From assembly GCA_022457155.1 (NCBI GenBank), contig JAJGOT010000198.1, positions 641,001 through 705,000 on the forward strand: 64,000 bases of DNA, in the 5' to 3' direction. The notes beneath the pieces were generated by a model. It worked only from the letters and a program-made list of their open reading frames with translations. It had not been told where the DNA came from and did no database searches. The position numbers and the translations under genes were made by a program. The stretch's first letter is position 1, and every line of letters starts with the position of its first letter. Source of the DNA: Cladopsammia gracilis. Lineage: Eukaryota; Cnidaria; Anthozoa; Scleractinia; Dendrophylliidae. Of the stretch, positions 26,390 through 63,939 are shown piece after piece.

Positions 26390-27708
26390 TATAGCGCGAA
26401 AGCGCGCGTGATATCGCCTAATACTTAGCCGAAGAGGCCGTAGGCCGAGTCGGCTAAAATTAGGCGATATCACGCAAGCTTGAGCGCTATAATAGTTTTA
26501 TAATTCAACACATTGATAACAAAGCACAGTTTGAAGAAAAAATATCGCCGACAAGCCTTTTATTTTAAAAAAAAGCTTAGATGTTTTACCGCGCGAAACT
26601 TGCAACATCACACAGTTCATGAATGAAAGTGGCGCCTTTGTCAATATTGTCCAAGCTTGAACACTATAACTGTTTTATAATTCAACACATTGATAACAAA
26701 TCATCACAGTTTCGAGAAAAAAATCATTGAGATATACAACCTTTCATTAAGTAAAAAGGCTAACTACAATATTTTACCTCGCACCATTTCTTAAACAACA
26801 AGCAGTGAATGCCGAAACTTTTGCCAAGCTAAAATTAATTTAGCGTACACAATCATTTGACAGTTTCTACGAAGAGCTTTCGTCTACTCAAAGAACGGGA
26901 CAGAGTAGTGACTAAAATAATTAAAACACAGTAAAATGGCATAGAATGTCTTAGTTACAAGTGTTTCGTATCTTAAAAAGTTCAATTCAGAATCAAAACA
27001 AATTGAACAAACACACGGCTACGAACCTAAACGTAGCGGCGAAAAGTCGGAAAGAACTGCAGCGTGGACAGTAAGCTTACAAAAATTCACAGCTAAAGGA
27101 TACAAGAAACGGTTAAAACATCGTACCTGTAGTTGATTTGACTTTTTAGTCCCTTCCATCAGCACCAAATTTTCAAACATCGAAGTACGAGCTGAGTCGA
27201 TCAATGTTGTTTACAAACTTGGAATGCTCGTTTTTAGCTCCCACAGCCATAATGACGAGATCAGAAACTTTTCTGAGCAAAACATCAAGTCTATATCATA
27301 TTCCAGAGGTGATTACCAAAGGAATTTCACGAAAACTGTGCTCCTTCATTCACTTCTTGTCGAGCGGTTAAACTTTGAACCATTTTTCATTCACCTTCGC
27401 CAAGAAATACTGCGACCGCGACAACGCGAAAATTTCGCGCCTTTTTTGTCCAATCATGTGAACAGTATTTTTCTCTTTTCTTTTCTTCTCTTTTTTTCTT
27501 TCTTTTCCCTTTTTTAACTAATAGTTCACTCACTTTTTCGCCAAAAAACACGAAATTGCAGGCAGCAGTGTCGGCAGCAGTCATTTTCACTTTCCTTCAA
27601 AATGCGAAATTTACCGCCATCGCTGGTTATACGTCATGTAGACATAACGCATATCGATAACTTTTTTACCATATTTGGGCAGTGTATCAATGTGTTGAAT
27701 TATAATAC
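26390..27708. mobile_element. Dispersed repeat, reference (uninterrupted) copy
   Basis: A stem at 26404-26476 (GCGTGATATCGCCTAAT/ATTAGGCGATATCACGC with an inner TAGCCGA/TCGGCTA) precedes TATAATTCAACACATTGAT. That block recurs inverted at 27690-27706. A second copy is split by the 14.6-kb insertion: left part to 46786, right part 61383-62412. This copy is uninterrupted through the point where the second copy is broken (26650-26660). No convincing ORF is seen. Confidence 0.8.
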
Positions 27709-31685: not shown

Positions 31686-31688
31686 TTA

Positions 31689-32048: not shown

Positions 32049-32201
32049 CAATTTTTACCCCACCCGAATGGAGACCCTGCCCCTATTTGTACTGACTCAA
32101 CTTTTATTGATTCACCACCGCTTGAGGATTCCCCGCTCAATTACCACGCTTGGGAAAACGAACTTTTCCATGATCCCGACCGCTCTTTTATTCTCGATGG
32201 T

Positions 32202-33724: not shown

Positions 33725-33738
33725 GATATCTCTCTCAG

Positions 33739-34626
33739 TTGGACCGTCGCGCTCAGATTGTCTCCGCCTCTGCCTACTCTAGCTCAACCCTGGCTACTCG
33801 CCGTTCTCAGTGGCGAGTGTTTCTACGCTTCTGTTCGGAGTTTGGCCTGGCCCCTGTCCCAGCCTCAACCAGAAATGTTATTCGATTTCTCATCCATTTG
33901 TCTTCTTACTGCAAGTATTCCACGATAATTAATTACCTGTCTGCTATAAACGTCCTTCATCGCCACTTTGGTCATGATGTCACCTTTCAAGAGGTTTTTA
34001 CTGTCAAACTAATCGTCCGAGGTCTCCGCCGCGTTTTGGGTGACGCACGCGAACAAAAACTACCCATCACTCCTGAGATCCTTTTGCGTCTCCGTCCTAC
34101 GGTTACGGCAGACAGCGATTCTGGTTTCTGGGCGGCGATGCTCATGGGCTTTTACTCATTCTTTCGAAAGTCTAACCTTGTTCCAAAATCCGCTAAAGAT
34201 TACGATCCTTCTAAAACTTTGTTACGCAAGAACATTATCGTTCGACCATGGGGCCTAGTTATTTGCGTGACTTGGTCCAAAACCATCCAGTTCAAGGAAC
34301 GACAACTTCTCATACCGGTTCTCCGTCTCCCCGCTGACCATCCGTTGTGCCCTGTACAGGCCTACGAACGACACCTACGTCTCTTTCCAGCCCCACCATC
34401 CTCACCCGCATTTCTACAATCTCGCGGAGATTCAGCTACACCCATAATGCATGCAACTTTTACCACCAAATTACGTAAATCTTTGAGTGACACTGGGCTC
34501 AAGGCCTCTAACTACTCCGGTCATAGCTTTCGTCGTGGAGGAGCAACATTCGCCTTTCATTGTGGTGCCCCTGTTGAACTCATCAGCCTTCAAGGAGACT
34601 GGTCTTCGGATGCTGTGCTCCTGTAG
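33739..34626 (+). pseudogene. Ngaro tyrosine recombinase, stop at catalytic Tyr position
   Basis: The core-binding part (RRSQWRVFLRFC, INYLSAINVLH) is followed by the catalytic domain with FFRKSNLVP (first Arg), GHSFRRGGATF (H..R) and LQGDWSSDAVLL. The next codon is TAG (34624-34626). Beyond it the same frame stays open (IAQPLKRRMSVAQLI) to a stop near 34701. In related recombinases a Tyr is expected in this place, so the nonsense change removes the nucleophile itself. Confidence 0.85.
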
Positions 34627-34752
34627 ATCGCCCAGCCTTTAAAGCGCCGCATGTCAGTGGCCCAACTCATCGCCACGCACATTTCTTCATCATCAACTTA
34701 ATTCTTACTTTTCCCCTTCATCTCCCCCTTCTTCTATTGTCTGGTGGTTTGG

Positions 34753-34901
34753 GCGGGCCGCATCGGGGGGGAGGCGGGCCAACTTCGGTCGCGGCTCCCC
34801 CGCCACTCCCTTGATGCGGCTCTGCTCTTTCCGGCAAACAATAAAGTTTATTATATTGTCACCTGATAGTCTCTCCTTTATTTAATCACCTGCGTAGGAT
34901 T
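34753..34901 (+). repeat. Ngaro B1 split direct repeat
   Basis: 149 bp from GCGGGCCGCATCGGGG to TGCGTAGGATT, with AATAAA inside (AACAATAAAGTTTATT). It is repeated at 35052-35200. Confidence 0.9.
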
Positions 34902-35035
34902 ATGTGAGGTATTTGACTTTGTCCAATAGCATTATAATACGGAGCGTCAGTTGGTTAATCATTGACTACCGTAGGAACACGTCCTATCTCAAGTTAGTTT
35001 TACTTCGCCTTTGTACTGTACACACGTTGCTTTTT
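34901..35035 (+). repeat. Ngaro A2 split direct repeat
   Basis: Second copy of the 135-bp A repeat, directly after B1. Confidence 0.9.
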
Positions 35036-35051
35036 CCCACCCATCCCACCC

Positions 35052-35200
35052 GCGGGCCGCATCGGGGGGGAGGCGGGCCAACTTCGGTCGCGGCTCCCCC
35101 GCCACTCCCTTGATGCGGCTCTGCTCTTTCCGGCAAACAATAAAGTTTATTATATTGTCACCTGATAGTCTCTCCTTTATTTAATCACCTGCGTAGGATT
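35052..35200 (+). repeat. Ngaro B2 split direct repeat
   Basis: Second copy of the 149-bp B repeat, marking the 3' end of the element. Confidence 0.9.
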
Positions 35201-35780
35201 ATATATGACGATTATATGTTAAAGGTATAATAAAATTCTGGAGCTCGTAATCTGTATCATGACCAGTTAATTTCAAAGCAAAAACCGAAATGTTTCAACT
35301 TACATGTAAAACAGCGAACAATATATAAGCCACATGTATTTACATTACATGTAAATTGTACCAAGACAAATATCGAATGCAGTCTCATTTTATAATGTCG
35401 TCTACAGCGTACATCATAACAGTCATGTACTATCGAGGACCGATCGAGGTCAATATATTTTGAATTTGGCAGGAGAAAGAATGCTGTTTCACCGCAACAA
35501 ACTATGTAATAACATTAAACCATTCACTGTTGTCAAGAAATAATCAAACAGTCTTCTAATCGTACATTGCATAAAGTCGAAGCGTTACGGTATTTAAGCT
35601 TAATAATATACATGTGGCTTACCGTACGCTGTAGGCTTCGTTCGATTAACTGCATTCCGGAATAAAAATAAACACTACAGCGCTTTCTTTATAGTTTATT
35701 AAGACACACTTGCAGTATACACATGTAAATCTGGCAAAACATGGTTATAATACGACAGCTTTCATGTTCTTTAATATTAT
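35201..35780. other. No gene seen
   Basis: AT-rich sequence with TACATGTAA-type short motifs. Nothing coding is evident. Confidence 0.5.

Positions 35781-45173: not shown

Positions 45174-45210
<37 letters not shown>
45174..45210. repeat. (AT)n tract
   Basis: It borders the left end of the palindromic Penelope-like element. Confidence 0.9.
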
Positions 45211-45211
<1 letters not shown>

Positions 45212-45246
45212 CAATGTATGATTACTCACAGTTGTTTCATATAGAC

Positions 45247-45302
45247 TTTAATACAGTTCTGTTTCGTGGACCGATGTTGCGTCGGTCTACTCATCAGTTA
45301 AA
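45247..45302 (-). ncRNA. Hammerhead ribozyme, left arm
   Basis: Inverted copy of the ribozyme at 46269-46324 with all core bases present. Confidence 0.8.
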
Positions 45303-46268
45303 TTCTATATACACTGTAGCATAAAAGAGGTTTTATACATCAGTAATATGATCTAGACCGAAGCCGTTACAAAATTTAAACAAAAGTGACAACAGAGAGA
45401 GATACATATAATTGGTCCTGAAAAATACGAAATAGACAGTAATATGATGCTGACCAAAAACGTTAAAAAATTAAAACTAGGGGTACAATACATATAATTG
45501 GTTCTAAATGATGCGGTATAAACGATCAAAGCAAACCCAAAGAACAATAGAAACCTATATAAGTGTGGGATATTTCTAAAGGATTCAATTAAATTTAAGG
45601 AGAAACTTTCGCTTGTGCCTACAAGTGGATACAAGTTCATTGCGTTTATTAAGCGTTGCCATGTCTGGTTTATATAAAATAAAGAATTTCTCGGTGTTAC
45701 AAAGGTTACACCGTTTTGTAAGGTTACTATAGGATTTGGCCTTGGCAAGGATTCTCCAGGAGATTGTAAAGTCTTTGTTTTGATCTTTCAGCTCCCAAAG
45801 ATTACAATCTCCTGGAGAATCCTTGCCAAGGCCAAATCCTATAGTAACCTTACAAAACGGTGTAACCTTTGTAACACCGAGAAATTCTTTATTTTATATA
45901 AACCAGACATGGCAACGCTTAATAAACGCAATGAACTTGTATCCACTTGTAGGCACAAGCGAAAGTTTCTCCTTAAATTTAATTGAATCCTTTAGAAATA
46001 TCCCACACTTATATAGGTTTCTATTGTTCTTTGGGTTTGCTTTGATCGTTTATACCGCATCATTTAGAACCAATTATATGTATTGTACCCCTAGTTTTAA
46101 TTTTTTAACGTTTTTGGTCAGCATCATATTACTGTCTATTTCGTATTTTTCAGGACCAATTATATGTATCTCTCTCTGTTGTCACTTTTGTTTAAATTTT
46201 GTAACGGCTTCGGTCTAGATCATATTACTGATGTATAAAACCTCTTTTATGCTACAGTGTATATAGAA

Positions 46269-46324
46269 TTTAACTGATGAGTAGACCGACGCAACATCGG
46301 TCCACGAAACAGAACTGTATTAAA
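46269..46324 (+). ncRNA. Hammerhead ribozyme, right arm
   Basis: Stem I TTTAA/TTAAA, core CTGATGA, a long stem II (GACCGA/TCGGTC closed by GT/AC), GAA, helix III ACA/TGT with loop GAAC, then A at the cleavage site. All invariant bases are present and every stem pairs. Confidence 0.85.
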
Positions 46325-46442
46325 GTCTATATGAAACAACTGTGAGTAATCATACATTGTTATAACCGCTCCATTATTGTCGAGCACTATTCTGGATACA
46401 TCAGTGTGGAACTCACCTGTAGTTATATATATATATATATAT

Positions 46443-46581: not shown

Positions 46582-46789
46582 TTGGCTAAAATTAGGCGAT
46601 CTCACCCAAGCTTGAGCGCTACAATAGTTTTATAATTGAACACATTGATAACAAAGCACAGTTTGAAGAAAAAAATATCGCTGACAAGCCTTTTATGTTT
46701 TTAAAAAAAGCTTACAGATGTTTTACCGCGCGAAACTTGCAACATCACACAGTTCTTGAATGAAAGTGGCGCCTTTGTCAAGTGTGCAA
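46582..46789. mobile_element. Dispersed repeat copy 2, left part
   Basis: It matches 26450-26650 (TTGAGCGCTA, TATAATTGAACACATTGAT, ACCGCGCGAAACTTGCAACA, GTGGCGCCTTTGTCAA) and stops at the CACTGG end of the 14.6-kb insertion. Confidence 0.85.
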
Positions 46790-47370
46790 CACTGGAAAAA
46801 CTGGACCATTTACAGACTTACAAAATCATAGTGAAATCTCTGTAAAATTTGTAAAATCTCAATATTTTCCTTGTAAATTTCGAAGTCTGTAAATGTGCAC
46901 ACTTACAGAGATTTTACAAATCCCATAAAAAGTCTGTAAATTTTCACCCGATTTTTGCATCGTTTTTTATGAAATGTCTGTAAAATCTTCATGTTTATCT
47001 TGTAAATTTTTGAAACCATTTACAGAGATTTTATTAGGAATTTACAAAAGGTTGTAAAATATTTGTAAAATCTCTGTAATATTTTACAGAGATTTTATAG
47101 ATTTCCAAAAATCTCTGTAAAATCTCTTTATTATGTCTGTAAATTTGTATGTAGTAAATGTGCAGTTTTTACAGAGATTTTATAGATTTCAAAATATCTG
47201 TAAAATCTCTTTATTTTCTGTGTAAATTTGTATGTAGTAAATGTGCACTTTTTACAGAGATTTTATCAACTCTTTAAAAACTATGTAAATTTCACTTTTT
47301 TTTTCCACATTTTGTCTGTAAAATGTTAATGTTTATACAGAGATTTTACAGTACTAAAAATAATCTCTGC
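46790..47370. repeat. Left subterminal repeat region
   Basis: About 20 variants of TCTGTAAA, TTTACAGA and GAGATTTTA words in both orientations follow the terminal repeat. They are likely transposase-binding sites, by analogy with CACTA elements. Confidence 0.75.
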
Positions 47371-47763
47371 CAACATATTACTGTAGGCATGCTACAAAAA
47401 ACTTGCAAATTACTGGGTACATAAACATATCAAAAACCAGTAAACACCACCTTGGTAAGTTTTGGCATAGAAATAAGCTTCACTTGTCTTAGCACAATTT
47501 AAGTGCATAGCTTCCACAGTCGCGACATTTTGGGGTTTCTGGATTTTCCATGCTTGTACCCAGCAATTTATATGAGAAACCAGCAGCTAACAAATCCATG
47601 AAACTGGAAGGCAAGGCTTCAATGCAACATTATTAATTTCCTTTATTATTTTCATCTAAAGGATCATGATAAGAAATATATTCTATCTTCTATTATATTG
47701 CAATACATATAACTATCTCTAAGAAGGTGCAGCAAGATCATGATATATTAGAACATTTTTTGG

Positions 47764-48285
47764 AAATTAATAAATATCCTTTTGCATCAGAACTAATAAA
47801 TAAAAGGTCCCCCTAGTATATTTGTCTAAGGTTCAACAAGATCACATTTTATTTTTTTTTTGGGGGGGGGGGGGGGGGTGGGGGGGGGGAATTAATAAAT
47901 AAATTTCTTTCTGCAATAAAACTTATAAATCAAAGGCGGTCCCCCTGTAATTATTTGTCTAAGGTTCAACAAGATCACAATTTATTTAAATGTTTTGTTT
48001 GGAATTAATAAATAAATTTCTTTTTGCAACAGAACTTACAAATCAAAGGCCGGCCCCACTGGTATATTTGTCTAAGGTTCAACAGGATCACAATTTATTT
48101 AAATGTTTTGTTTGGAATTAATAAATAAATTTCTTTTTGCAACAGAACTTATAAATCAAAGGCCGGCCCCACTGGTATATTTGTCAAAGGTTCAACAAGA
48201 TGATGATCACAATTTATTTGTTTTTTTTTGGAATTAATAAATAAATTTCTTTCTGCAAAACTTATAAATAATAGGTCCCCTGATG
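47764..48285. repeat. Tandem repeat, about 113-bp unit, 4-5 copies
   Basis: Copies share GAATTAATAAATAAATTTCT, TCAAAGGCCGGCCCCACTGG and GGTTCAACAAGATCACAATT blocks. One copy holds a G-rich run (47862-47889). Confidence 0.85.
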
Positions 48286-48582
48286 TATTTGTGTGATCTC
48301 TTTTCAATAAAAAATGGGGAATTTATACAAAATTTCTTTCTGCAACAAAACTTTAAAAAATAGTCCCCTTTGCCCTTGTTCTTCAAAAAATGGACAGTGC
48401 TTTCCAGAGAATAACATATAATTAGCTTTTACAAATTTATCTGCTGGATAGTGATTTATTTATACCCACAAAAGATAATCTTCTTCTTCTTCAACCATTT
48501 CTTGAAGTTTAGACATGTATGCATGTCTTTTTTTGGTTCTTAGGTTGTAAAAGTTGATTATTGACTCTAATTATTCAAGTAG

Positions 48583-50093
48583 TTAAACAATAACAAGATT
48601 ATCCCTTGTTACAACCTTTGTTTCGTCTTTCCCACGAACTTTTCCTTTAAGGAAAAGCTCCTTTCCAATAAGTACCACTAAGTTCTCTTTGTTTTCTGCC
48701 ATTTCACCCGCCCTAGGGACAGGCACACCCAGGTCTTGCAGAGTTCTTTTAAGTTGCATAGTTTTTAAATCAGCTAATTTCTTTACTTGCATAAAGAACA
48801 GAGTGGTGATTATTGCCATTTGCCTCGGTATCTGAAATTGATGAGAAAAAAAATGGCATTTAAAAGTGAAGCGCATACTGCTTTTGAATACTTTGATATT
48901 CTTATAAGTGTACAAAACAGGAGACTACTTAATTGAAAACCTTGCTTTCAAAGAGAATACTACATTACTGCAAAATTTTACAATGCTATACACGTAGTTA
49001 AAACAGGTTGCATGTTGACTCCAAATAATAGAGAATCAATCAATAGAGTTGATACAGTATAACCTCATTATATCATTTCCCAAGGGAAGTGAGATGCCAT
49101 GCATTATTTTATCCATTGAAATTTTAACATTGGTTCAATTCCTCAAATACCAAATGAGGGTCATTACATACTACTATTAGCCATATAGTTGTGTCACAAT
49201 CTTACCAAATTGTTTTTAAGAGTTCCAAATTTCCCTCTTCTATTCTTTTTAATCTTTCCAACTCATATGGAGAGATATCAGGAAGACTCTATAAAATTGA
49301 ATAAAAATAAATAACTTAGTACTGTGTGCTTCTACAGGTAAAGATATGATGGATGATGGGGGATGAAAATCAAACTACCCTTATCTACAACTGTACTTGC
49401 CACATACTTACCATAAAACCATATTTATACCATGCCATAGAAAATACAATCAATCAGAATACAGAAAAGCTGTTGTACAGTGTATATATTAAACGGTATT
49501 ACACCAAACCTTCCTATTTTGTGCTGCGATCCTGTTCCTGCTAGTGTATTTTCTATGGCATGGTATAAAATAATTATGCATCACTTTCTCATGATATACC
49601 ATGGAATATCCCATTTGTCACTTGTACTTTCTTGGTATACACACTTGACAACGCTTGTGTGTACACCGAGAAAATTCAAATGACTAGTGGTACATTCCAT
49701 GGTACCACTCAAAAGTGTTGCATTACTAGAGTATACATGTAAATACCAAAACAAAACAAGCCCATCTCAAAAAAAAATGTAACTTTACCATAATGTACAA
49801 GCCTGCGTGTTTATGTGGAAGCTGCTGTTGAAAAGGTGAACCCTCTTCAGCATGAAAATTACAATAACACTCACATGTTCGTTGTTTACTTCATCCTCGT
49901 TTACAGGACTTGCAACCTTTTTACGTCCCTAGCAAAACAAAACGTGGCTTAGAATTCATTCATTCATTCAATGACAAAGGTAGTCTATTATTATTATTAT
50001 CATGTGTTCTCTATATAATTATGTGTTTTCCATGAGGGCTGGGTCCAAACCATGGACCTAGGGCACCCATGAGGCGCTGTGTGGAGGCCACAC

Positions 50094-50153
<60 letters not shown>

Positions 50154-52694
50154 TTGTAGTCACTATCTGTCTTCTCATTGGCTAAGAACCTACATTTAAT
50201 TCTGGAAATCAGCTCACCCTACAAGATTATTCACTTATCTGCTAGTAGATACACTGTAAGTGAATTATCTGTTAAGTGTGCACTGTCACGACAAGTCATG
50301 ATTTCCAAGAGCAATGCCCAGTTCACGGGTGGTGAATTCTATTCTTGTTGGAAAATAATAAAGTATGTTCCATGCGACAGTGTTTTTGTTGAAATTTTCT
50401 TTAAAAAAAAGAGTAATAAAACAATTATTAGATTCGTTTTTTGTAATATCAGGAATAATCAAGGTCTTGGTAAGTGTTATCAGCTGAAGCCGAAGGCTTG
50501 ATTATCACAAAAACCTCATCCACTATTATTTGTTTATAATAATAAAACACTGTCATAAAACTGAGAACACCCCTTCATCCCTGTACGCTTACTTTGTCAA
50601 CTTTTTTTTTCTTTTTGTCACTGGCTCCTGGGTTATTATCCTGTAAAAATAATATTGAAACAATAAATAACAACAACAAACACACTTTAGTCACATTTTT
50701 ACTTCTTATGGCTTGTTTAAAAAACTCAATACTTTCTGTGCAACTTTGCAAATTTTGGTCATTATGTATTTTCATTGGCAGTTTAATCTGAGAAATTTGC
50801 CATGTGCAAACAGCTTGCTTGCATGGTTTGGGAATTTGCTTGCAACGGTTTTCAGGAGATTCCACTTGTTCAAAAAAACCTTCTATGATCAGTTTGGTCT
50901 CAGCTTTAGTTCACATGCTAAATAATCAACTCAGTAATATTCCAAGCAAAATTTTCAAATAAAAAGGAATCTGCCAAATAATCTACCAGATGAAATTTTC
51001 TACCGAAATGAAGTTGTTTGCACCAGTTGCAAATTATGTAGTTCTTAGGGTAAACGGTCAATCAAATTACCAACATTATGATGTTAGTTTGTAAAGTTTT
51101 ACAGAAAATTCCATCTTGTTTGACTGTAACTCTGAATACTTGAAAATAAATGATACTGTCTTTTGATGTTTATAAAACTAACACCGTTACAGGTACATAT
51201 GCTTACTTGATTAACTGGTTTTGCTCCTGGATTACTTTCCTGTGAAAACAAAATATTAAAAGGTTAAGTATCTGTTTGCTTCAATCACAATCACATAATA
51301 TGCCAAGCCCAGTATTTAAACTTAGAATACATTGGTGGGAGGCAAGTGCTCTCAACACCACACCACCCTTGATCTTATGACTTTACTCTGGTTGCAGAGT
51401 TAAGCAAGAACATGCATCAAAAGCAATAATAAAGATGAGTAAATTTGTGCTTACAACAATTTCTCCATCATCGCTTGAGCTTTGCTTGACTCTCTGTAAA
51501 ATAAAAATGACCATTTGGAAATGTTTGAAATCCCATATTATAGAGTAACTGACAATAATGCTTTTTATGGTTATTACTTGTGACAACATTTCAAAATTTT
51601 CAGTGTGCAATGTTAGTATACTGGCAGTAATAACTTTTTACTTCTTTTATTTTTTTCTGTTAAGGTTACAGTGTACCTTCGGGGGTGTCTCCAGTATAAC
51701 AGCTCTAGCGTCTTAAGATTACACTTAATATACCTAAACCCAAATATCAAATTAAAGCTTATAGAGCTGGCTATCTAAATATGGAAACCATTTGGTAATA
51801 AAATGAATTGTCGAATTTTTTACGACGTCTAAATTCGAACGTCCGAATCAGCTTTAAAACGCTATAACTCAAAGCGATTATTATATTTTCTAAATTTGAT
51901 TTGTTCTCGGGTTTCCGGACACGAAGCGCTAAAAAAACGTGTCGGCGATTTTCCATATTCAATTGCAGTGAAAAGTTACAGAATATTTTCGAAAAGGGGA
52001 GAAAAAAAAATTGGAATGATCGCACGGAAATGCCTCTTGACGAAAAAGTTTTCGGAATTAAGAAATTCGCCGACACGTTTTTGTTGATTATATGTCAGCC
52101 TAGCTTCTGTCCAAATTTAAGGAAAATCGAACAAATTCCCTTTGAGTTGTAGCTCTTTAAAGTGTCCCCAACAAGCGAAAAATTAACTTTGAGAAAACGG
52201 CGCTTAAAAAAACATATCGCTTAATAAACAAACTCCGCCCACAAAAGTTATACCGTCATTTCTCCGTCAATTTTCACTAATTTTCGATACTTTTTTTTTG
52301 GATGAAAGCTCATTCTGTAAACTTTATTTTAACGCCAAAAAAAAATTTTCAATAAATTTTCGATCTGAAGGTACACTGTAACCTTAAGTGGGTGTTCCAA
52401 GCACATAGGCATTTTGACTGCGCATGCTCAGGAAAATGTGAATCGAACACATGATTGCCGCCATTTTGTTTCGAGGGGGCCGTTGGGCAGGTTTTCAGGC
52501 GAGTGATCGATGCTTTAGAAAAGTATCTATTGAGAAAATTGAAAGAATGTGATGAGTTTACATACAATACTAACCCTGTGGACACTCGTGGTGTTTGTTG
52601 AATGCTTGGTTGGCGAGTTATCATCGATCAAAGTGCGAACATGAATTGTATAAATGGGCAATGCACGGGAGTTTGACACTAGATCTACTCGTGT
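48583..52694 (-). CDS. Cargo gene 1: multi-exon gene of unknown function
   Basis: Minus-strand exons in order: about 52694-52575 (VRTLIDDNSPTKHSTNTTS; no in-frame ATG seen), 51493-51455 (RVKQSSSDDGEIV), 51239-51207 (ESNPGAKPVNQ), 50640-50593 (DNNPGASDKKKKKVDK), 49928-49875 (GRKKVASPVNEDEVNNEH), 49288-49206 (LPDISPYELERLKRIEEGN, LELLKTI), 48823-48583 (LADLKTMQLKRTLQDLGVPV, to stop). Phases agree at every junction. Four consecutive tiny exons have good GT-AG sites. The product is a charged linker, a Y-E-x-x-R-L-x-x-I helix motif and a SAP-like C-terminal part. The last acceptor (ACCGAG) is chosen by frame. The better-looking CAG 11 bp upstream would give a stop. Confidence 0.6.
51664..52383. 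mobile_element. 720-bp TTAA element in the first intron of cargo gene 1
   Basis: It starts GGTTACAGTGTACCTTC and ends GAAGGTACACTGTAACC, with TTAA on both sides (51660-51663 and 52384-52387). It is non-coding, and younger than the 14.6-kb element it sits in. Confidence 0.85.
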
Positions 52695-53097
52695 TCAAAA
52701 AATATGGACGAACAAGCAATCAATTCAGGTTAGTGTCAAGGAATTGAAGTTTCGTTATTTAAAAATTTAAGTCTTTATATCAATGCGTGAGTAAGTTACA
52801 CGGTTCTTTTATAGTGCTAAATTTTGATTTCCACTCGATTTTCCTTCAGTTTCAGTGTCAATTTGCTTAATTTTTTTACCGTCCCCCCAAATTGTAATTA
52901 TCGGAGATAACTTTATTATTGCTTTATCTGTTTTACAGTGCAGAAAATGAGACCTTAAAAAATGCGTGGCGTTCAACATGTACGTTTTCCTTCACAGCAC
53001 CTCTGGTGCATTTGCATACGACAAGATTTCGTAGATTTTCTCGGTCGTCGATCAAAGAGTTGGTTGACCATCTTGTTGCTGAAGTCTGCTGTGAAAG
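52661..53097 (+). CDS. Tentative divergent transcript, two exons
   Basis: An ATG at 52661 (MHGSLTLDLLVFKKYGRTSN) runs to a donor at 52728. It joins in phase 2 to 52939-53097 (NETLKNAWRSTCTFSF, SIKELVDHLVAEVCCE) after a TTTTACAG acceptor. No following exon fits the phase. It overlaps the first exon of cargo gene 1 on the opposite strand, so a bidirectional promoter with a non-coding transcript is equally possible. Confidence 0.3.
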
Positions 53098-53159
53098 GTA
53101 AGCAACTATATTCCTATGCAGCTGCTGCAATTACATCACTGCAAATATTGAGTAGGCAA

Positions 53160-56100
53160 TGAATTTTTTTATCCTTTTTTGATAAGTGTGGTGTCAATAA
53201 TTTTCTTTTTGGAAGTGCAAGCTTGAGAAAAAAATGGATATATCTTTTCATTTCACCTGTCCCCCCAGTCCCAAAATCTGTCGACGACTTATTTATTTAT
53301 TTCTTTTTCGCTTTGTTTAATTTGTTTACTTAAAAAAAATGCGTGCTTTTTACTTTACGAGTTCAAAGTGCTGCTAATTTTAGTTAAAGTTGGCCTTCGA
53401 AGCTCAGTTGTGTTGTGGTACTTTTCACGAACTCTGACACGGTACTAATTCTCTGAATGAATATTTTTTTAGGAGAATGCGCTGCTTGTGATGCTGACTG
53501 TCTGTTTGACATTTTTACCTTAATGAAAACTGGAACACTTTTTGGTCCTTTTCGTTGTATTGGTAATGTCTTGTTTATAATTCTTCAAAATGTTACAATA
53601 TTCAGATTTGTGATTTACTCTTGCAACAACTCCATATACTGCAGTACATACTATGGAAATGCAATATTTCTGTTATAAGATAAAGTTTATTATGAACTGA
53701 AAACTAAAGATCATCCTTTGACATACACACAGTCTCAATGTGTTTGCCAACACTGAAAGATGCAGTCGCACAAAATAATTGATCTTTTACGCTTTGTAGA
53801 ATTTTTTAAAAAAATATAAATTATGCTATTTAGTTTAGGCTTGCTGCTTCCCAATATGTTAGTGGTGCCATTAATTTCTTAAAGAACTTCTGTGTTCGTG
53901 TTTTTTACGAGCAAGGTCAATAATTTATGATTATGATATGGCATTTACCAGAGATGGGCTTCTGTTTCCATCAGTGTGATTAATTTTATTTATATGGTGT
54001 ACCTCAAAATGTTATTATCAGAACAACAACTCTTAGAACAGACCCTGCAGAAATATCATATTTGCTGTCTTGTTGTAAGATGAACTGTACTGTCAGTTGT
54101 ATTTAAAAGAAATGAATGTTAAGCAACATCTGTAAATCAGATACAGTGACAATTTTTGGCACAGTGTACTTTGGCCGAAGTAGCAGCATTTCAGGCAGCT
54201 GAACATAATCCAAATTCTAAGTATTGCTCTACAGTATTCTAAGAAATTATTTAGTTTAAAGGAAATGCTGTGCATTGAGAGGCCAGATTAAAGGAATATA
54301 GTTGTCCAACAGATTAAACAAGTTCCATACTGAAGGTCTTTGAATCTTGAACACTTCTTCATGACAGTATCAGTGTCCAGCCCCATAGACAACCTCCAAG
54401 ATTAGGCTTACCCACCAGGGCTTAAGAGTATCTGCCAATCTACTTCTGGGGAAAATTGTTTCATATATTGATTTAAAAATTGGATGAAATGAATTAAAAA
54501 CATGTTCTCTGCTATTTAGAGAGATGTGAAGTGGCCCGATAGTTGGACAATGGACAAAATGGATGGCTGTCCAGTGATATTCTCAGGCAGGCTGTCATTG
54601 ATGTGACTGTCACCAGCCTTAGAGGACAATGGATATGAATACGAAGAGTGATCATTTGAAATATGAGAATGTTCCTGCTGAAGAGTATTGGTCAACCCAG
54701 GATATATGATCTCCCTACAATAGAATTGGCCTCAAAAGAAAGCCAAACCTGTGCTCATTACTATATCATATGCAGTATCAAAGTCCTTCTTTGACTTCAG
54801 TCTGTACACTGTAGCTCGACAAAATCCAATTGATGCAAAGTGCCTGTTTCCCACATTGTTCTAACATTGCCACATCACAATGTTGATGTGTGTTGATTCT
54901 GTGTCTTTCAAGTTCAGGGGTAACAAATTTCTGCTGTGAACCAGTCGGCATCACAGACGCATATGTGTTACTGATATTATGCATGCAAGATGCAGATGTA
55001 ATAATTACATACATGTACAAAATAATGCATGATTATTTTTCTTTGCTCTAATAACCTGTCTGTTTGACATTGTATACAAAAGAAATAAAAAAATGCGCCG
55101 AGTGCATTATTGAGTTATAGAAGCATGCAGGAATTTTTAAGAACACAAGAGAAGTGCAGAGAAGCATGAGCCAAGTGTTCTTAAAATTCCAAACAACTTA
55201 ACAATGCACAAGGAACAAGTTTTTTTATTTCTTTTATAAAATAAAAACGGTTATAATAAACCTTATGTCACGCGCGTGCTTTATTTCTGAGAGAATTACC
55301 AGAGTTAATTTAAAAACAAAATTAAGAATATACTTTTGTCTATACTTAAAGAAGCAGATTCCTATATTAATATTGACGAGATTATCTCTTAAGTTAAATC
55401 AAAAAGTAATTAATTAATATTTTCACAATTCTCTTTTTTTATTTCAATCACTTGTTTCTTCTTCCCCCCCCCCCCCCTTTTTTTTCTTCTATTGTTTGAT
55501 CCTTTCTTTTTATTTCAACAAATTGGTGTGCGTAGCGATTTTTAATCATGTAATTAATTTCACTGGCCTGCCAAGATTAGCTTTTGCTACCTGCAGGCCA
55601 GTATTATAAATTCTATAATAACTAACTAATAAAGATTTTTTTTTTTTGTTGTTGTTGTTGTTATCGAGTTATAATGAACTCGGTTTAACCAATCATAGCG
55701 CACGCATTTCCTTGAGCATTTTATAACGAGTTATAATGAACTCGGTTTAACCAATCATAGCACACGCAATTCCTTGAGCATTTTATAATATGTAATATAT
55801 ACTGTGTCCCAGCGTGGAGAATTTAAATGCTGATCACTTGAAAATTAAAACGGGTGTCTAACACCCATAGTCAACCAAAGTTTAAAAATAAAGTACTATT
55901 AGGCCCGGTTAAGATGCCAGACTTCTCATAAGTCAAAGCAAATGGCATCTGAATCAACTGTTTGATTGAATATTTGACTGTGGACCAGGTTTGAGTCAGA
56001 AACCAAATTTCACATGACCTGAATCGACTGCATAAATTATTAAATGTAATTTGAGGCAAGGATCGATTTTTTTATTAGATAGTATTTTAATGATTTGGGT

Positions 56101-57000
56101 CAACCTAAATATGAATTAAGTTAAGCTCATGAAAAGTTTGGTGCATGAACCAGGCTTTAAAAATAATCACGTTATTATTAATCTCATATCAGCATCTGAG
56201 ATAATGGAGATTTTTCAATAAATGTGCAGGGTGTCAATGTTAGATTTAGCTGAAAATATTTCCCTCTGTAAAATTTTCAGTTTTTCAAGTTAAAAGTGAT
56301 TGTCTCATAACCAAGCAGTCTTAAGATCAGTAACGGTTATCTCTCATGGGAGATGCTCCTGTGTTTTAAATAGCTGATCAAAAAAGCATGAACACTAGCA
56401 TTATTTTTTAAATATATTGAGGTGAAACCAATCAGTTGTAAGAGGAATAAACTACAAATCCCAGCATTAATATTGTTATTGCAGATTGTTCTCCCATCCC
56501 ATTGGTCACCGTGCAACTCACATATTATTACTACTTAATTAAGGAATTAGTGGGGTGAGCATGGCCAGGGATATTCTTCTTTTGTCTTGGTAAATTCAAT
56601 CAGGCTATTAGCTAAAAAAATATTGCAGGTCGCAGCAGTTAAGAGGTGGTTAAATCAGGACAACATTGCTTGAGGTTATTATACTCTTCAATTTGAGATG
56701 TCCTTAAAATTGTGCCACTAAAATGTTTTCTAACTGCCAAATGAAGATAATTACAGCTTCCAGTAAACTATTTAAAGCAAATTATGCAAACAAGGTTTCT
56801 TACTCGCTGATAATATCTTTAATTTTTCCTCCGTTTCTAAGAATGTTTCCTTAGGTAAAGCTACACCTTATTATCACTATCTGACTCTTCCTTTTTGGAA
56901 AATCAGTGACCCTCGTTTTTTCGGTACTCCTACCCGCTGTCGATTGAGTTAAAGAATTTATTGTCCTCGGAAAAAGAGGCACTTGAAATATTCAATAATG
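53160..57000. other. Interior of the 14.6-kb element, no gene supported
   Basis: AT-rich sequence. The frame at 53457-53678 begins near a TTTTTTTAG acceptor and ends near a GT donor (53571), but its phase fits no neighbouring exon. Apart from the direct repeat at 55663-55788 I see no structure. Confidence 0.4.
55663..55788. repeat. Two-copy direct repeat, about 64-bp unit
   Basis: CGAGTTATAATGAACTCGGT with TTAACCAATCATAGC, and TCCTTGAGCATTTTATAA, occur twice in tandem. Confidence 0.9.
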
Positions 57001-57015
57001 ACTTACAGACAGTAC

Positions 57016-57159
57016 TTATGTGATGGAAGGACTTTTCAGAGCGACGATACTCTTGAACAGCTCGTCTGCAGCGTTCACAAAAATATCTCCGTCCTTTATT
57101 TCACTTGTCGAATTTGTTCCAAAACAACCCTCGAAATCATCACTGTACGCGGCTAGCAT
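57016..57159 (-). CDS. 47-aa ORF in the 14.6-kb element
   Basis: ATG to TAA, in a GC-richer island. It encodes MLAAYSDDFEGCFGTNSTSE, then IKDGDIFVNAADELFKSIVA and LKSPSIT. A strong GTAAGT donor lies just after the stop, so it may be the coding part of a first exon or an upstream ORF. The codon choice looks coding. The family is unknown. Confidence 0.4.
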   Translation of the reverse strand: MLAAYSDDFEGCFGTNSTSEIKDGDIFVNAADELFKSIVALKSPSIT

Positions 57160-58008
57160 TTTGCCAAGGGCTCTGTAGGGACTTTCTCTCACAAACTACA
57201 CAACCATTTTTCGATTTTTTAACAGCAGTCTCTAACACGTAACCAAACAAAAAGAAGAAAGACGATCAAACATTTTGTTGCGTACACCGCCATTTTTTTT
57301 TTTGGTGTGCACGCGGAGCAGGCGCATACCAGCGGTTACGTTCATTAAAATACTCTTTATGGAGCATGCGCAGACAAAATGCCCCTCTGCTGGTGTTCCA
57401 CCGTATCCTTTAAAATTTATTTCTGGCAACTATCTAAAATACATAATCACCTTTTGTGGTTTTAAATCCTCACTGGTGCAGCTTTCTTGAACCTGCTGAC
57501 ATAAATTTTTGAATGAAAAAATATTAACACTAAATATTAATATTAATTGCTGCACTAATACAAATCTTTGACTAAATTAAACATGCCAAATGTTTATTTT
57601 ACTAAATGCATTACTGCATATAACAATTAGGCATGTTGGTCTCGTCAAATGACCATCTTATAATTTTCTTTTCTTTTTCCCCTCCACTAGCAGCCTTTTA
57701 TTATGCTTAAACAGAATGTGAACACAATATGAAAGGATGAAAATGGAAGGATTTCATATTCTGAAAAGATATATAATCAGAAGGATTACATGTAGGGCCA
57801 TCTAAAAATGAAATGCTCCAATTTAAGGTAATTTTTTTTTGATTCACTCAAATAGTCCTTATCAGGCAAGTCTGAGTGAAAATATGACACATGTGGTTAT
57901 GCCCTGAGCACCTTAAATGTATTTTTACATAATGCTTGGCTTTTAATAACAAGTAAATCACTGTACCTTTCTTTTATAGGCAGTAGGCTTTCGGTTTGAG
58001 GCTAGCTT

Positions 58009-59617
58009 TCACGCAATAAGGACCTTGGCCTTTGACCGGTTTAACGTAAAACTCCCACTCTTGCCAAAGTGGAAAGTTCCGTAGAACTTTGCCACAGAAG
58101 GACTGTCAACAATTTCATCGGCAATATCCATGTTTTCCTTTGCATCGTCTCCATCAGTGCTGTCACAGCATTTTAAAGCTCCAGCTCCCTTCCACTATCA
58201 TGACAATTGAAATACATTTAATTCTGATTTTTGGTGACACAAGAAAGATTCATATTTTAGTCGGTGACACAGGCGTAATTTCACTGCATATACAGTTTGA
58301 GTTTGAGTAGGCGGGGTCGTACTTTACCTACAGTAACTTCACTTCACCCTTATCTCATGACTAAAATTGAAATGAATAACATTTTAATCATTAAAATGTG
58401 TAAAACATTAGCTGTCTGTTTAGAAAACGGACGGCTATTTACAAAAGATATGTTGATTGGGCTCACATTTACTTTTAAATTCTCCCAAACACCAATTCTT
58501 ATGTTATGAAATGCATGACGCAGACTTTTTGCCAAAAATTGAAAAATGGGTGTCCTGGAGGTCTTTAGGTGTTATTTCTAAGAATTTCATGGTATCCCTT
58601 CTGCCAAGAATGCATGTAATGCAAGCACAAGGGCAGTCAACATATGCAGAAGCAGTAACATGTTGATCATATCAGTCTCTTTGGTTAGCATTTGTCCTAA
58701 CATAAGCAACTTAGTATTGACCAATGACCAATAAATTATTACAAATAACTGTGTCTTCATCTATTGCTTGACTCATGCTTGACTCATTTATATACATTGT
58801 AAACAGTCCTTAGTGAGTCTTAGTGGTAAAATAATCTCATTCAATTATTTTAATATTTACCTTTCCTTCATGTCGCCTTATTGCTGCCAGCAATGTTTTA
58901 TTAAAATCATTATATTTTAGAATGACAGCTTGAGCTGACAAATCAGTTTGTGCCAGCACAACTAATTCTTTTTTTGATAATTCTTTATTGGCATTAAGTG
59001 CTGTACTTGGACTTGCACTTATTGTACTTGTTTTATCTATCAAAAGATAAGACAACACACAAAGGAATTAACAACTGGAAACTGTTAAAAAATCTGTGAA
59101 AATTATTTTCAACACAATGCATTGTAATACACTGTACACACAATCCTACTAACTAAATTGTTCAAAAATTAATTACAAAGTTTACTTGCCTGGGGCAATA
59201 CATGTAACTTCATTGGATTCAGGTTTGCTATCTGTGAAATAAGAAATAATATTAGTTAAGCATTCAAAACATCATTTTGAACACTTTCAAAACAAACCTT
59301 AAAATAAACCCTGTTCTTTTCGTAGGTCAAACTGCAAGATATATTGTGATGTTTGCCAAGTTGTTATTACTTAGCTTTCAATAAGCAAGGTAAATGAGTC
59401 AGCAATGGAAAACAGAGCGATTAATCAAAATTTCCTTGCTGAAGACCATCATTTCCCGACCCCCACCGTAGAAGGTATCTCAGTCGGTAAAAATTCGCTG
59501 AGCGATCGATCGTGCCAAATAAGTTTATATTTTAGACCGTTTTACCTTATTATCTTCCACCACAATCTTTATAAGGTCTGCCAACCCATGTTTTCTAAGA
59601 AAATCGCCAGCATCCAT
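58009..59617 (-). CDS. Cargo gene 2: six-exon, 197-aa protein of unknown function
   Basis: Minus-strand exons: 59617-59546 (MDAGDFLRKHGLADLIKIVV, EDNK), 59331-59310 (micro-exon FDLRKEQ), 59231-59190 (SKPESNEVTCIAP; GC donor GCAAGT), 59036-58861 (NKELSKKELVVLAQTDLSAQ, LLAAIRRHEGK), 58562-58467 (TPIFQFLAKSLRHAFHNIRI), 58194-58009 (KENMDIADEIVDSP, FYGTFHFGKSGSFTLNRSKA, stop TGA). Coding lengths sum to exactly 198 codons. All phases agree. The N-terminus resembles the first helices of SAM-type domains; the rest is unrecognised. It sits wholly inside the 14.6-kb element. Confidence 0.65.
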
Positions 59618-60839
59618 GGTCTAAGGAAAGAACCGGCGTAAGTCAAACAAAATGAAGCTTATCTCAGTGCGGGTCGTGTCCACCATCGACAGCAGCGATC
59701 GCAACGATCCAATTCCATCGACATGACTAACAATTTCCAATGTTGAAAAAGCTAAAACTAAGATTTGAACACTGATATACTCACTCGCTTTGAAATTGTC
59801 CACTGTCCGACGAAAAAAAAAAAGATATTACACAAAATGTACAAGCGAAGATGAATTTGCATGAACTCAACGAAATAACGAAAAAGAGCGCGAATGGAGC
59901 GAGAGGCATTGTGGTAAGGTTTGTGTAACATGTGACTTGAACATGTAACCTACGTCACATCCATTCCTGTCCCCAGACCGCCACCGTTTTTCCGAAAGAA
60001 CGAAACGAGGGCTGTGGGGAAGAGAATGTGTCAAAGTACTACACGTGTTTGTAGCTGTCATGTCGGTCTGTTTTTTTTTGTGAAAAATGTCGCGGTAACG
60101 TATCGTGGCATCGAACCACTGTAAATCGCCACTTTGAGCGCCAAGGTATGTTAAATAGTAGTTTGGAAGATGCCAGCTTGGATGAATCTTGGATGAATCG
60201 TATTGCCGTTCCGAAGGCTTTATAGGACAGGGAGAAATTCGCCTTCTTCAGTCCTGTGAAAACAACTTTCACTTCGATTTTGCATCCAGCCTCTTCACGC
60301 AGGTTTGTCTTTGTCCTAATAAAGCAAAACAGAAGAACTGATATAGCAAAAAGAATCGGTAAATACCGTATCAAAATAAGGATTTTCTTACCATTTGACT
60401 GCCTCAGCAATAAAATGAGACAATAACTTTCTCGCATAGGTATTCTTGTCCGCCATGCTAGTTTAACATACCACCGATAGCCATTGCATTCTCACTTCAT
60501 TCCCAGGTTATACCGCTTTCTTGCAACCGTGTGTCGTTGCTCGTTTCTGAAACCGACTGATTAGCTCGGTTGTTAATTATGTCCGGTTAGTTAAGTAATC
60601 CCGGTTAGCTTGATCTTTTTTTAACCACCAGGTCGTCCTCCAACAACAACGCATTTCGTGATTCTACTTTTGTGTAATATTTTGCAGTTTTATGCTTATG
60701 ACTGTTTCGTAAAACGTGGCTGTCTACTACACCTTAATATCAAGAGCAATACAGAAAGTAAAATATCGATTTACCATTTAATGACTTTACTGTTTGAACA
60801 AAAATTTTGTCACTGACAATTGTAGAGAATTCATTTAGA

Positions 60840-61050
60840 ATGCCCCGTATATGCTATTTACAGAGATTTTACAATGCCCCATATATGCCATTTTACAGAG
60901 ATTTTACAATGCCCCGTATATGCTATTTTACAGAGATTTTACAATGCCCCGTATATGCCATTTTACAGAGATTTTACAATGCCCCGTATATGCCATTTTA
61001 CAGAGATTTTACAATGCCCCGTATATGCCATTTTACAGAGATTTTACAAT
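60840..61050. repeat. Tandem repeat, 35-bp unit, six copies
   Basis: ATGCCCCGTATATGCC plus ATTTTACAGAGATTTTACA repeats with few changes. The second half of the unit is the element's subterminal word, so a binding-site word has been amplified. The three open frames here are repeat artefacts. Confidence 0.95.
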
Positions 61051-61379
61051 ACCTACAAAAATTTACAAACATTGCTGAATTCCAGCAAAATCTCTGTAAA
61101 TCGCATATTTACATGCAGATATTCCACAGAGTTTTTGTTAACTCTGTAAATTATTTTCAGTATTTCATATTCGATACACTAGAATTTACAGACATTTTAT
61201 AAAGCTTTCAAGCCATACAACGATAACTAAAGTCTGTAAAATATCTGTAAAACAATAATTTACAGACATTTTGTTTTTCACCCAAATAAAAGCCATAAAT
61301 TCGTTTGTGATAAAAAGTCTGTAAAAACTAGATTTACAGAAATTTTGTAAACTCTGTAAATGGTCCAGTTTTTCCAACG
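61051..61379. repeat. Right subterminal repeat region and terminus
   Basis: Further TTTACAGA, TCTGTAAA and ATTTACAGACATTTT words lead to the terminal GGTCCAGTTTTTCCAACG. Confidence 0.75.
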
Positions 61380-62408
61380 CAAGCTTGAACACTATAACTG
61401 TTTTATAATTCAACACATTGAAAATCACAGTTTCGAGAAAAAATCATTGAGGTATACATCCTTTCATTAAGTAAAAAGGCTAACTACAATATTTTACCTC
61501 GCACCATAAAACAACAAGCAATGAATGCCGAAACTTTTGCCAAGCTAAAATTAATTTAGCATACACAATCAGTTGACAGTTTCTACGAAGAGCTTTCGTC
61601 TACTCAAAGAACGGGACAGAGTAGTGACTACAAGAATTAAAACACAGTAAAATGGCATAGAATGTCTTAGTTACAAGTGTTTCGTATCTTAAAAAGTTCA
61701 ATTCAGAATCAAAACAAATTGAACAAACACACGGTTACGAACCAAAACATAGCGGCGAAAAGTCGGAAAGAACTGCAGCGTGGACAGTAATCTTACAAAA
61801 ATTCACAGCTAAAGGATACAAGAAACGGTTAAAACATCGTACCTGTAGTTGATTTGGCTTTTTAGTCCCTTCCATAAGCACCAAATTTTCAAACATCGAA
61901 GTACGAGCTGAGTCGATTAATATTGTTTACAAACTTGGAATGCTCGTTTTTTAGCTCCCACAGCCGTAATGACGAGATCAGAAACTTTTCTGAGGAGGCA
62001 TCAAGTCTATATCATATTCCAGAGGTGATTACCAAAGAAATTTCACGAAAATTGTGCTCTTCATTCACTTCTTGTCGAGCGGTTAAACTTTGAACCAGTT
62101 TTCATTCAGCTACGCCAAGAAACAACACTGCGACCGCGACAACGCGAAAATTTCGCGCCTTTTTTGTCCAATCATGTGAACAGTATTTTCTCTTTTCTTT
62201 TCTTCTCTTTTTTTCTTTCTTTTCCGTTTTTTAACTAATAGTTCACGGACTTTTTCGCCAAAAAACACGAAATTGTAGGCAGCAGTCATTTTCACTTTCC
62301 TTCACTAAAATGCGAAATTTACCGCCATTGCTGGTTATATGTCATGTAGACATAACGTATATCGATAACTTTGTTACCATATTTGGGCATTGTATCAATG
62401 TGTTGAAT

Positions 62409-62488: not shown

Positions 62489-62800
62489 TTTTACAAAAGT
62501 CGCTTCTCAAAAATGGGTACCCATCCTCATTAATAAAAAGTGGGCCATTTTCAGCACCCCGTACATTAACGTTATCCAAGAATGATTGCACAGGACATGC
62601 GTTAAACTGCACCGTGATTATAATTATGTTTATAGTTTGCGAAGGTAACTACCAAGGAAACTACCTTGCCCTTTTTACAAAACTGTCTCTGCACTTGTCC
62701 TAAATATAACAGGTTACTGTGGATACTTCGGGGCTTTGTGACCGTAATTTCACCAATACGTAGAAATCCAAAGGCAAACAGTAGCACCTTGAGAGACGTT
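62319..62800 (-). pseudogene. Tyrosine recombinase fragment
   Basis: The minus strand encodes LLFAFGFLRIGEITV (the first catalytic Arg block), NYKHNYNHGAV, then after a frameshift NACPVQSF, GPLFINEDGYPFLRSDF, before running into (AT)n. This is the start of the catalytic domain of a tyrosine recombinase as found in Crypton- or DIRS-type elements. The H..R and Tyr blocks are absent. It is distinct in sequence from the recombinase at 33.7-34.6 kb. Confidence 0.7.
62413..62485. repeat. (AT)n microsatellite
   Basis: It separates the dispersed repeat from the recombinase fragment. Confidence 0.95.
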
Positions 62801-62809
62801 TACTTAGGG

Positions 62810-63939
62810 ATGCGGAAGTTAAACCCCATATATGGTGGAGGTTTATAGACGATATATTTTTCATATGGACGGAGGGTGAGGAGAAACTTCAAGAGTTCAT
62901 AGATTATTTGAATAATGCGCATGATACTATCAAATTTACGTCGAAATGGTCAACGAGTGAAATTAAATTTTTGGACGTTAAAGTTATAAACGAGTCGGGA
63001 GATTTAGAATCGGACGTATTTGTTAAACCCACAGATAGCCATCAATATTTGCATTACAGTTCATGCCATCCTAACGCATTCAAGAAAGGCATACCTTACG
63101 CACAGGCTTTACGACTGCGGAGGATTTGTTCGAAACTTTGCTTTTTTGAAAGGAGAGCAAGTGATCTGAGTGAGTTTTTAGTTACAAGAGGATACAAGAA
63201 GAATTTTGTGGAGAGTCAGATTGGAAGGGCTAGAAATATGTCAAGGAAAGAAGCTTTGGAGGCCAAACAGCGTGAACGAATCCAAAAAATACCTTTTGTT
63301 GTGACATACCATCTTGGCTTACCGAATATTGGTGGAATACTAAGAGAGCTGCACCCAATATTGGAGTCATCAGATAGATGCAGCAGAGCCATTAGAAATA
63401 TCCCCATGGTAGCATTTAGAAAACGTAAAAGTTTGGCGGATTATCTGGTCCATGCAAAGTTAAACAGGAACTCGAGAGAGCGTTTACAACGAGGGGTAAG
63501 CAAGTGCGGGTCAAGGAGATGTGAGGTGTGCGGTTACATGGACATGAAAGATTTTTTTGTTTCCACTGCCACTGGTAAAATATATTCCATTAACTATAGC
63601 CTTAATTTGTAATTCGTGTAATGTGTTATATAATATGTAGGATCTATCACGACTAAGTTTAGACTTAGATTTAATAACCACAAGTCGAGAATCAGACGGC
63701 ATGGAAAACTTGAACAAGTAAATCGAGAGAATGATGACTTGTTTTATAAGCATCTGAGGAGTGAAGGACATAACGGGTTGACGGATGTGAAGATTCAGAT
63801 AATAGACAGGGTGAATGGAGAAAGAGAATTGAGGGAAAAGGAGAGACAATGGGTGTATAAGCTGAACACTTTGAGCCCGTATGGTCTCAATGACAATGAT
63901 TTTTTCTTTGGTCAAAACAAGCGCTCTAGGCGCACGTAA
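62810..63939 (+). pseudogene. Penelope-like element, RT palm to GIY-YIG endonuclease
   Basis: It starts abruptly within RT at WWRFIDDIFFIWTEGEEKLQ (catalytic DD). It continues EIKFLDVKVI, YLHYSSCHPNAFKKGIPYAQ, RLRRICS (thumb), a Cys-rich linker CGSRRCEVCGYMD, then, after stops near 63610, YVGSITTKFRLRFNNHKSRI (GIY-YIG endonuclease) and KERQWVYKLNTLSPYGLND. The 5' half is missing. It is a different subfamily from the 13-kb and 44-kb copies. The 3' end may lie just past 63939. Confidence 0.85.

What the first reader, a model, noticed from the sequence alone, without database searches (positions are those of the whole stretch)
46790..61379. A 14.6-kb CACTG-ended transposon carrying spliced genes, with its empty site in the same window
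Both ends share TGGAAAAACTGGACC in inverted orientation and are bounded by CAA. The flanks are halves of one dispersed repeat that is uninterrupted at 26650-26660. So the whole 14.6 kb behaves as one insertion. CACTG ends, 3-bp duplication and repeated subterminal words fit EnSpm/CACTA, yet the interior shows two intact-looking spliced genes and no recognised transposase. It may be a gene-carrying giant element or an unusual autonomous element with undescribed genes.
Basis: partly seen in the sequence, partly recalled or inferred. Interest (0 to 1): 0.88.

Follow-up and report, generated by a model that had tools for sequence, protein, structure and literature searches.

The report
Nested, gene-less CACTA-type transposon copy
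This 14.6-kb stretch is one copy of a CACTA-like transposon family, found at about thirty places in the same genome, that was enlarged when a second, different transposon landed inside it; no gene was recognised in it, and it was likely moved by an enzyme encoded elsewhere, so it is ordinary rather than a giant gene carrier.

Summary
Confirmed: 46790-61379 is one insertion with inverted ends and a CAA duplication; the rejoined flanks match 26425-26900 (445 of 485 columns identical). In the window's own assembly (878 Mb) the 18-bp end occurs 57 times exactly. 29 copies have both termini readable; 23 of 29 have perfect 3-bp duplications (22 of 28 after merging two records of one site). Canonical ends are CACTGG...CCAGTG; this copy's right tip reads CCAACG. 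Median length is 9.7 kb; 15 of 29 lie between 9.2 and 10.0 kb. This copy is 14.6 kb because a 4,992-bp transposon (52400-57391, 9-bp duplication, nine other near-full-length copies) and a 0.72-kb TTAA-flanked insert sit inside it. One site seen twice, 9.2 and 26.6 kb between identical flanks, shows later growth. Six frames hold no Pfam family (E up to 1) and ORF substitutions among copies look neutral, so two spliced genes are not supported. A degenerate end pattern finds 609 ends genome-wide (0 in control). The genome has 56 CACTA transposase (PF02992) matches, but only one of 29 pairs encloses one, in the 55-kb copy and apparently nested. Verdict: non-autonomous EnSpm/CACTA-type element plus nested insertions; its mobiliser is inferred.

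The parts
46787..46789 (.). 3-bp target-site duplication CAA, left
46790..46807 (+). left terminal inverted repeat CACTGGAAAAACTGGACC
   Evidence: 57 exact genome copies
46832..47348 (.). left subterminal array of TTTACAGAGATTTTA-like words in both orientations (14 matches)
46808..51659 (.). element body shared with 9.3-kb copies, no recognised gene
50133..50498 (.). about 350-bp dispersed repeat inside the body; six 82-84% matches on contigs that carry no end of this subfamily
51660..51663 (.). TTAA flanking a short inserted element, left
51664..52383 (.). 720-bp inserted element with GGTTACAGTGTACCTTC inverted ends (MITE-like); copy number elsewhere not tested
52384..52387 (.). TTAA flanking the short inserted element, right
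52391..52399 (.). 9-bp duplication GGTGTTCCA, left of the nested transposon
52400..57391 (.). nested 4,992-bp transposon with 30-bp imperfect inverted ends; nine other near-full-length copies at 97-98%
57392..57400 (.). 9-bp duplication GGTGTTCCA, right; also the resumption of the outer element
57401..57785 (.). element body resumes (98-99% to 9.3-kb copies)
57786..59340 (.). 1,555-bp body segment present, whole or in part, in 13 other copies of this family; no match outside the family was listed
59341..61361 (.). element body, right part, ending in the subterminal array
60857..61347 (.). right subterminal array (12 matches), overlapping a 35-bp tandem repeat at 60834-61050
61362..61379 (-). 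right terminal inverted repeat; last three bases ACG here, GTG in other copies
61380..61382 (.). 3-bp target-site duplication CAA, right
26425..27705 (.). uninterrupted copy of the target repeat (paralogous empty site, junction near 26644-26655)

Best explanation
The stretch is one copy of a CACTG-ended DNA transposon family whose commonest size is 9-10 kb, with 3-bp target duplications and no recognised gene, enlarged to 14.6 kb by a 5.0-kb different transposon and a 0.7-kb insert nested inside it; it likely moved by cut and paste, using a CACTA-type transposase supplied in trans from elsewhere in the genome. Shown: the ends, duplications, pairing and copies; the nested insertions; the lack of Pfam matches and of coding constraint in the ORFs tested. 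Inferred: the trans-acting PF02992-type transposase, the binding role of the subterminal words, and descent by internal deletion and segment exchange from a once autonomous element.
For: Family: 32 places match the left 601 bp at 91-100% and a similar number the right 880 bp, full-length matches at 86-100%; 57 exact 18-mer ends, 32+35 at up to one mismatch against 6+10 for the reversed pattern. Duplications: 23 of 29 pairs perfect, against 34 of 812 when a left flank is compared with another copy's right flank. Nesting: the 9.3-kb copy C1281 aligns at about 97% to each of three others and lacks 51664-57391, as they do; the nested element has its own 9-bp duplication and nine other near-full-length copies whose limits fall within 8 bases of its own, six of nine exactly. 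Growth after insertion: C867 (26,618 bp) and C1197 (9,195 bp) share both flanks, 28 of 28 bases each side. Genes: 0 Pfam families in six frames at E up to 1; in 13 body ORFs the synonymous fractions scatter around the neutral expectation, and 11 of 13 have a frameshifting gap in at least one copy. Trans supply: 56 PF02992 matches in the genome. Ends rather than bodies shared: a second subfamily is 76% identical over the first 245 bp; other DNA matches were subterminal or low-complexity, and one body ORF of the other subtype matched a retroelement-like stretch.
Against: No transposase was tied to these ends. Only one of 29 pairs encloses a PF02992 match (C965, the 55-kb copy), and matches of the same type also sit on contigs without these ends. 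C1080 has a PF02992 match 15.1 kb inside a related left end, but the 2 kb fetched there show no family words, so it neither helps nor is excluded. Six of 29 pairs lack a perfect duplication, including the 34-kb C1104. Single short ORFs gave sub-cut-off Pfam matches, best E 0.0092. The coding test used 4 to 23 copies per body ORF and no transcripts. A transposase too divergent for Pfam, in short exons, cannot be fully excluded. In one search only 40 of 949 candidates were scored and only 48900-51660 was queried, so a diverged host parent of a body segment could have been missed.
Confidence: 0.9

Rival explanations
1. A giant gene-carrying transposon that mobilises two host-like spliced genes as cargo.
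For: Spans up to 55 kb keep perfect 3-bp duplications (C639 45.0 kb, C965 54.9 kb). Small open frames exist.
Against: 15 of 29 copies are 9.2-10.0 kb. The same site is 9.2 kb on one contig and 26.6 kb on another. The extra length in the window copy is a separate multicopy transposon. No Pfam family in six frames, only sub-cut-off matches for single ORFs, and no coding constraint seen.
Confidence: 0.03
2. An autonomous element whose transposase is too diverged for Pfam and split into short exons.
For: No transposase was tied to these ends although a degenerate end pattern finds 609 ends. Bodies are long for non-autonomous elements. C1080 places a PF02992 match 15.1 kb inside a related left end.
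Against: Substitutions in body ORFs are near neutral. Two copies of subfamily 2 share no long ORF; the best stretches are 98% over 60 aa in the subterminal region (DNA 95%) and 90% over 60 aa (DNA 86-87%), and the longest ORF in L069 is 120 aa. No body ORF matches the CACTA transposase locus L079.
Confidence: 0.06
3. Chance inverted words around ordinary host sequence.
For: At up to 3 mismatches the end word is no more frequent in the window than chance allows.
Against: Pairing in inverted orientation at about 30 places with duplications and an uninterrupted target repeat.
Confidence: 0.01

Closest known systems
EnSpm/CACTA superfamily (CMCT clade)
   Same: 5'-CAC..GTG-3' termini and 3-bp duplications, the pair of features that PMC12730594 calls consistent with EnSpm for fungal families (passages seen); subterminal repeat arrays
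   Different: no transposase in the element; animal TRC families such as SmTRC1 show CCC ends and 2-bp duplications (PMC1636069, passages seen)
Soybean Tgmt* 20.5-kb CACTA element (PMC2613891, passages seen)
   Same: 3-base duplication, short CACTA inverted ends, asymmetric subterminal repeats, large size
   Different: Tgmt* is described as able to encode the functions of an autonomous element; this one has no recognised gene
Pack-TIR / Pack-CACTA gene-capturing elements (PMC8277862, passages seen; Pack-CACTA papers, listing only)
   Same: non-autonomous TIR element with a body unrelated to transposase
   Different: no captured host gene fragment was identified here; bodies match family copies, a dispersed repeat and, in the other subtype, a retroelement-like fragment
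[quoted passage not shown]
   Same: large EnSpm-type element
   Different: the algal elements have more ORFs; this one has nested transposons

Membership tests
EnSpm/CACTA | CAC..GTG termini in inverted repeats | tested here: met
   57 exact CACTGGAAAAACTGGACC ends, paired inward; 27 of 30 right ends shown read CCAGTG; the window copy's right tip is changed
EnSpm/CACTA | 3-bp target-site duplication | tested here: met
   23 of 29 pairs perfect; cross-copy control 34 of 812
EnSpm/CACTA | repeated subterminal words near both ends | tested here: met
   26 of 27 window matches lie in the two ends; 0.51 expected
EnSpm/CACTA | CACTA-type DDE transposase encoded by the family | tested here: inconclusive
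   none recognised in the window copy; 56 PF02992 matches in the genome, one inside one of 29 pairs and apparently nested
gene-carrying giant transposon | size is that of the mobile unit | tested here: not met
   median 9,748 bp of 29; excess length here is nested insertion
gene-carrying giant transposon | cargo genes kept open by selection | tested here: not met
   13 body ORFs, 4 to 23 copies each
Pack-CACTA | body derived from a host gene | tested here: inconclusive
   for the two body stretches queried, only family copies and a dispersed repeat matched; 40 of 63 and 40 of 949 candidates were scored
TTAA-flanked element (51664-52383) | transposase family or copies elsewhere | not tested
   ends and TTAA seen only in the window
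superfamily of the nested 4,992-bp element | 9-bp duplication and a transposase to name it | tested here: inconclusive
   9-bp duplication shown for the window copy; no Pfam family in any frame at E up to 1

The most novel reading that the evidence does not exclude
A group with 609 detectable ends, so perhaps some 300 long (mostly 9-15 kb) CACTA elements, has spread with bodies that carry no recognised gene, sharing conserved ends while bodies are swapped; keeping such length without genes would mean the body itself (spacing, chromatin or RNA) matters for transposition, or that one hidden, very divergent multi-exon protein drives them all.
Probability: 0.1. Interest if true: 0.45.

Novelty: new member of a known kind. 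Interest (0 to 1): 0.2.

Why it matters
It shows how a reader of raw sequence can take a nested insertion for a giant gene-carrying element, and how copies in the same assembly settle it. For annotation, a group with 609 related ends would be a recognisable class II component of this genome. If the long gene-less bodies are required for movement, that would be a modest surprise, since non-autonomous DNA transposons are usually short (general knowledge, not from a call).

Tried and rejected
Rejected: giant cargo element. Rejected: the C965 transposase as the family's own; L077 shares its transposase stretch at 98% with C356 (L078), and PF02992 matches of the same span and similar score sit on C1192, C1098 and C263 (same type inferred from that), contigs on which the 18-mer search shows no end. 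Inconclusive: C1080. Led nowhere: Pfam on ten single small ORFs at E up to 10, only sub-cut-off hits, best E 0.0092; PDB search of the 113-aa ORF, one hit at E 0.3; Pfam on subfamily-2 copy L069, two sub-cut-off hits. A first coding test with fewer copies was replaced and agreed with it. The organism was not identified. Rows dropped before counts: C1122 (right tip missing) and five contigs with one end only (C676, C992, C1028, C1057, C1190) were left out of the 29 pairs. One search lists only the first 100 of 609 ends; the pair statistics use those 100 (31 inward-facing neighbours, 0 outward, 5 same direction).

Full report
Observation. The element is 46790-61379, 14,590 bp. One detail is wrong: only the left end is CACTG here. 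The right end is CCAACG, while 27 of the 30 right ends shown read CCAGTG (the others are this copy, C50 and the truncated C1122), so two of the last three bases have changed in this copy. The flanks align to the uninterrupted repeat at 26425-27705, and the joined flanks align straight through the junction with one CAA, 445 of 485 columns identical. The local bases just left of the CAA differ, so this is a paralogous repeat and not the same allele.

Copies. The window lies in an assembly of 877.8 Mb in 1,469 contigs. The left 601 bp match 32 places at 91-100%; the other 45 rows are partial, internal-repeat or 66-80% matches. The right 880 bp match a similar set, with full-length matches at 86-100%. 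The 18-bp end is found 57 times exactly, and 32+35 times at up to one mismatch against 6+10 for the reversed pattern. Twenty-nine places have both termini readable; 23 of 29 carry a perfect 3-bp duplication, with many different triplets, against 34 of 812 cross-copy comparisons. Six do not: C248, C1129, C1204, C1357, C350 and C1104. Two of the 29, C867 and C1197, have identical flanks, which leaves 22 of 28 sites. Lengths run from 4,969 to 54,920 bp with a median of 9,748; 15 of 29 are between 9.2 and 10.0 kb.

Why this copy is 14.6 kb. The 9.3-kb copy C1281 aligns at about 97% with each of C50, C339 and C232 over nearly its whole length. Against them the window copy has extra DNA from about 51664 to 57391. 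This resolves into two insertions: a 720-bp element with inverted ends flanked by TTAA (51664-52383), and a 4,992-bp element (52400-57391) with 30-bp imperfect inverted ends and a 9-bp duplication GGTGTTCCA. The latter is a separate family: besides the window copy, nine other places match it nearly full length at 97-98%, six of nine with exactly these limits and three overrunning by up to 8 bases. A further segment, 57786-59340, is present in 13 other family copies, whole or in part; in C1281, C50, C339 and C232 its place is taken by other sequence, which in C1281 includes a GIY-YIG retroelement-like fragment (the label is recalled). C1088 carries the first segment and also part of the second, so the subtypes look like deletion derivatives of a longer ancestor (inferred). 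Substitution divergence of the window copy from six others is 1.5-2.3%, so the burst is fairly recent.

Genes. Six-frame translation of the whole element gives no Pfam family at E up to 1; ten small ORFs scanned singly at E up to 10 gave only sub-cut-off matches, best E 0.0092. Seventeen ORFs were tested for coding constraint across held copies, 13 in the outer element body and four in or across the nested element. In the 13, with 4 to 23 copies each, synonymous fractions scatter around the neutral expectation, stops are not avoided, and 11 of 13 have a frameshifting gap in at least one copy. The four nested ORFs had few copies or changes and say little. For 48900-51660 the only matches listed outside the family were to a dispersed repeat of about 350 bp (40 of 949 candidates scored); the query 57700-59400 matched family copies only (40 of 63 scored). 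The rest of the body was not searched in this way. The claim of two intact spliced genes is therefore not supported, though transcripts were not available.

Wider group and mobiliser. A degenerate end pattern finds 299+310 ends, with none in the control. Of the first 100 listed, 31 inward-facing neighbours lie within 25 kb, none outward, with a median span of 10.8 kb; three of the 31 are subfamily-1 pairs. A second subfamily shares the first 245 bp at 76% but not the body; its two fetched copies share no long ORF. The genome holds 56 PF02992 matches. One of 29 subfamily-1 pairs encloses one: C965, 55 kb. That transposase type also occurs on contigs without these ends, so it is read as nested. 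A PF02992 match on C1080 lies 15.1 kb inside a related left end, but 2 kb of sequence there did not connect the two. Because one search lists 100 of 609 ends, other enclosed transposases in the wider group were not excluded. The mobiliser is thus inferred, not shown.

Classification. The ends and 3-bp duplications are what a recent paper calls consistent with EnSpm (PMC12730594, passages). Subterminal arrays are a CACTA trait (PMC2613891, passages). The element fits as a non-autonomous EnSpm/CACTA-type family. Large CACTA elements are known in soybean (PMC2613891) and a red alga (PMC6431247, passages). I made no broad search to prove that this family is unpublished.

Noticed in passing
L079:4726 (C1188:385425-385442) versus window 46790-46807: 17 of the 18 terminal letters CACTGGAAAAACTGGACC recur inside a CACTA transposase reading frame, encoding its motif TADHWKNWT. 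It is one of six one-mismatch hits not tied to an element copy, so it may be coincidence, but it is odd.
   Followed up: partly
window 52400-57391: Nested 4,992-bp element: 9-bp duplication, 30-bp imperfect inverted ends, nine other near-full-length copies, no Pfam family; superfamily not named.
   Followed up: partly
window 45207-46364: Near-perfect palindrome (98% over 864-bp overlapping arms) just left of the element.
   Followed up: no
window 2313-3300 and 4810-5800: Inverted arms of about 990 bp at 97.6% identity, foldback-like.
   Followed up: no
window 30284-35202: ORFs that look like reverse transcriptase and tyrosine recombinase between repeated ends; looks like a DIRS-type retroelement (recalled; only a sub-cut-off phage-integrase match).
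   Followed up: no
C867:2618384-2645001 and C1197:382454-391648: Same insertion site on two contigs with identical flanks but 26.6 and 9.2 kb between them: alternative haplotypes or a duplication.
   Followed up: yes
C1080:478330-493909: CACTA transposase match 15.1 kb inside a related left end; candidate mobiliser, not proven.
   Followed up: partly
window 62785-63612: ORF with RFIDDIFFIW, resembling a reverse transcriptase of the Penelope kind (recalled), beside the element; no Pfam hit at E up to 0.01.
   Followed up: no
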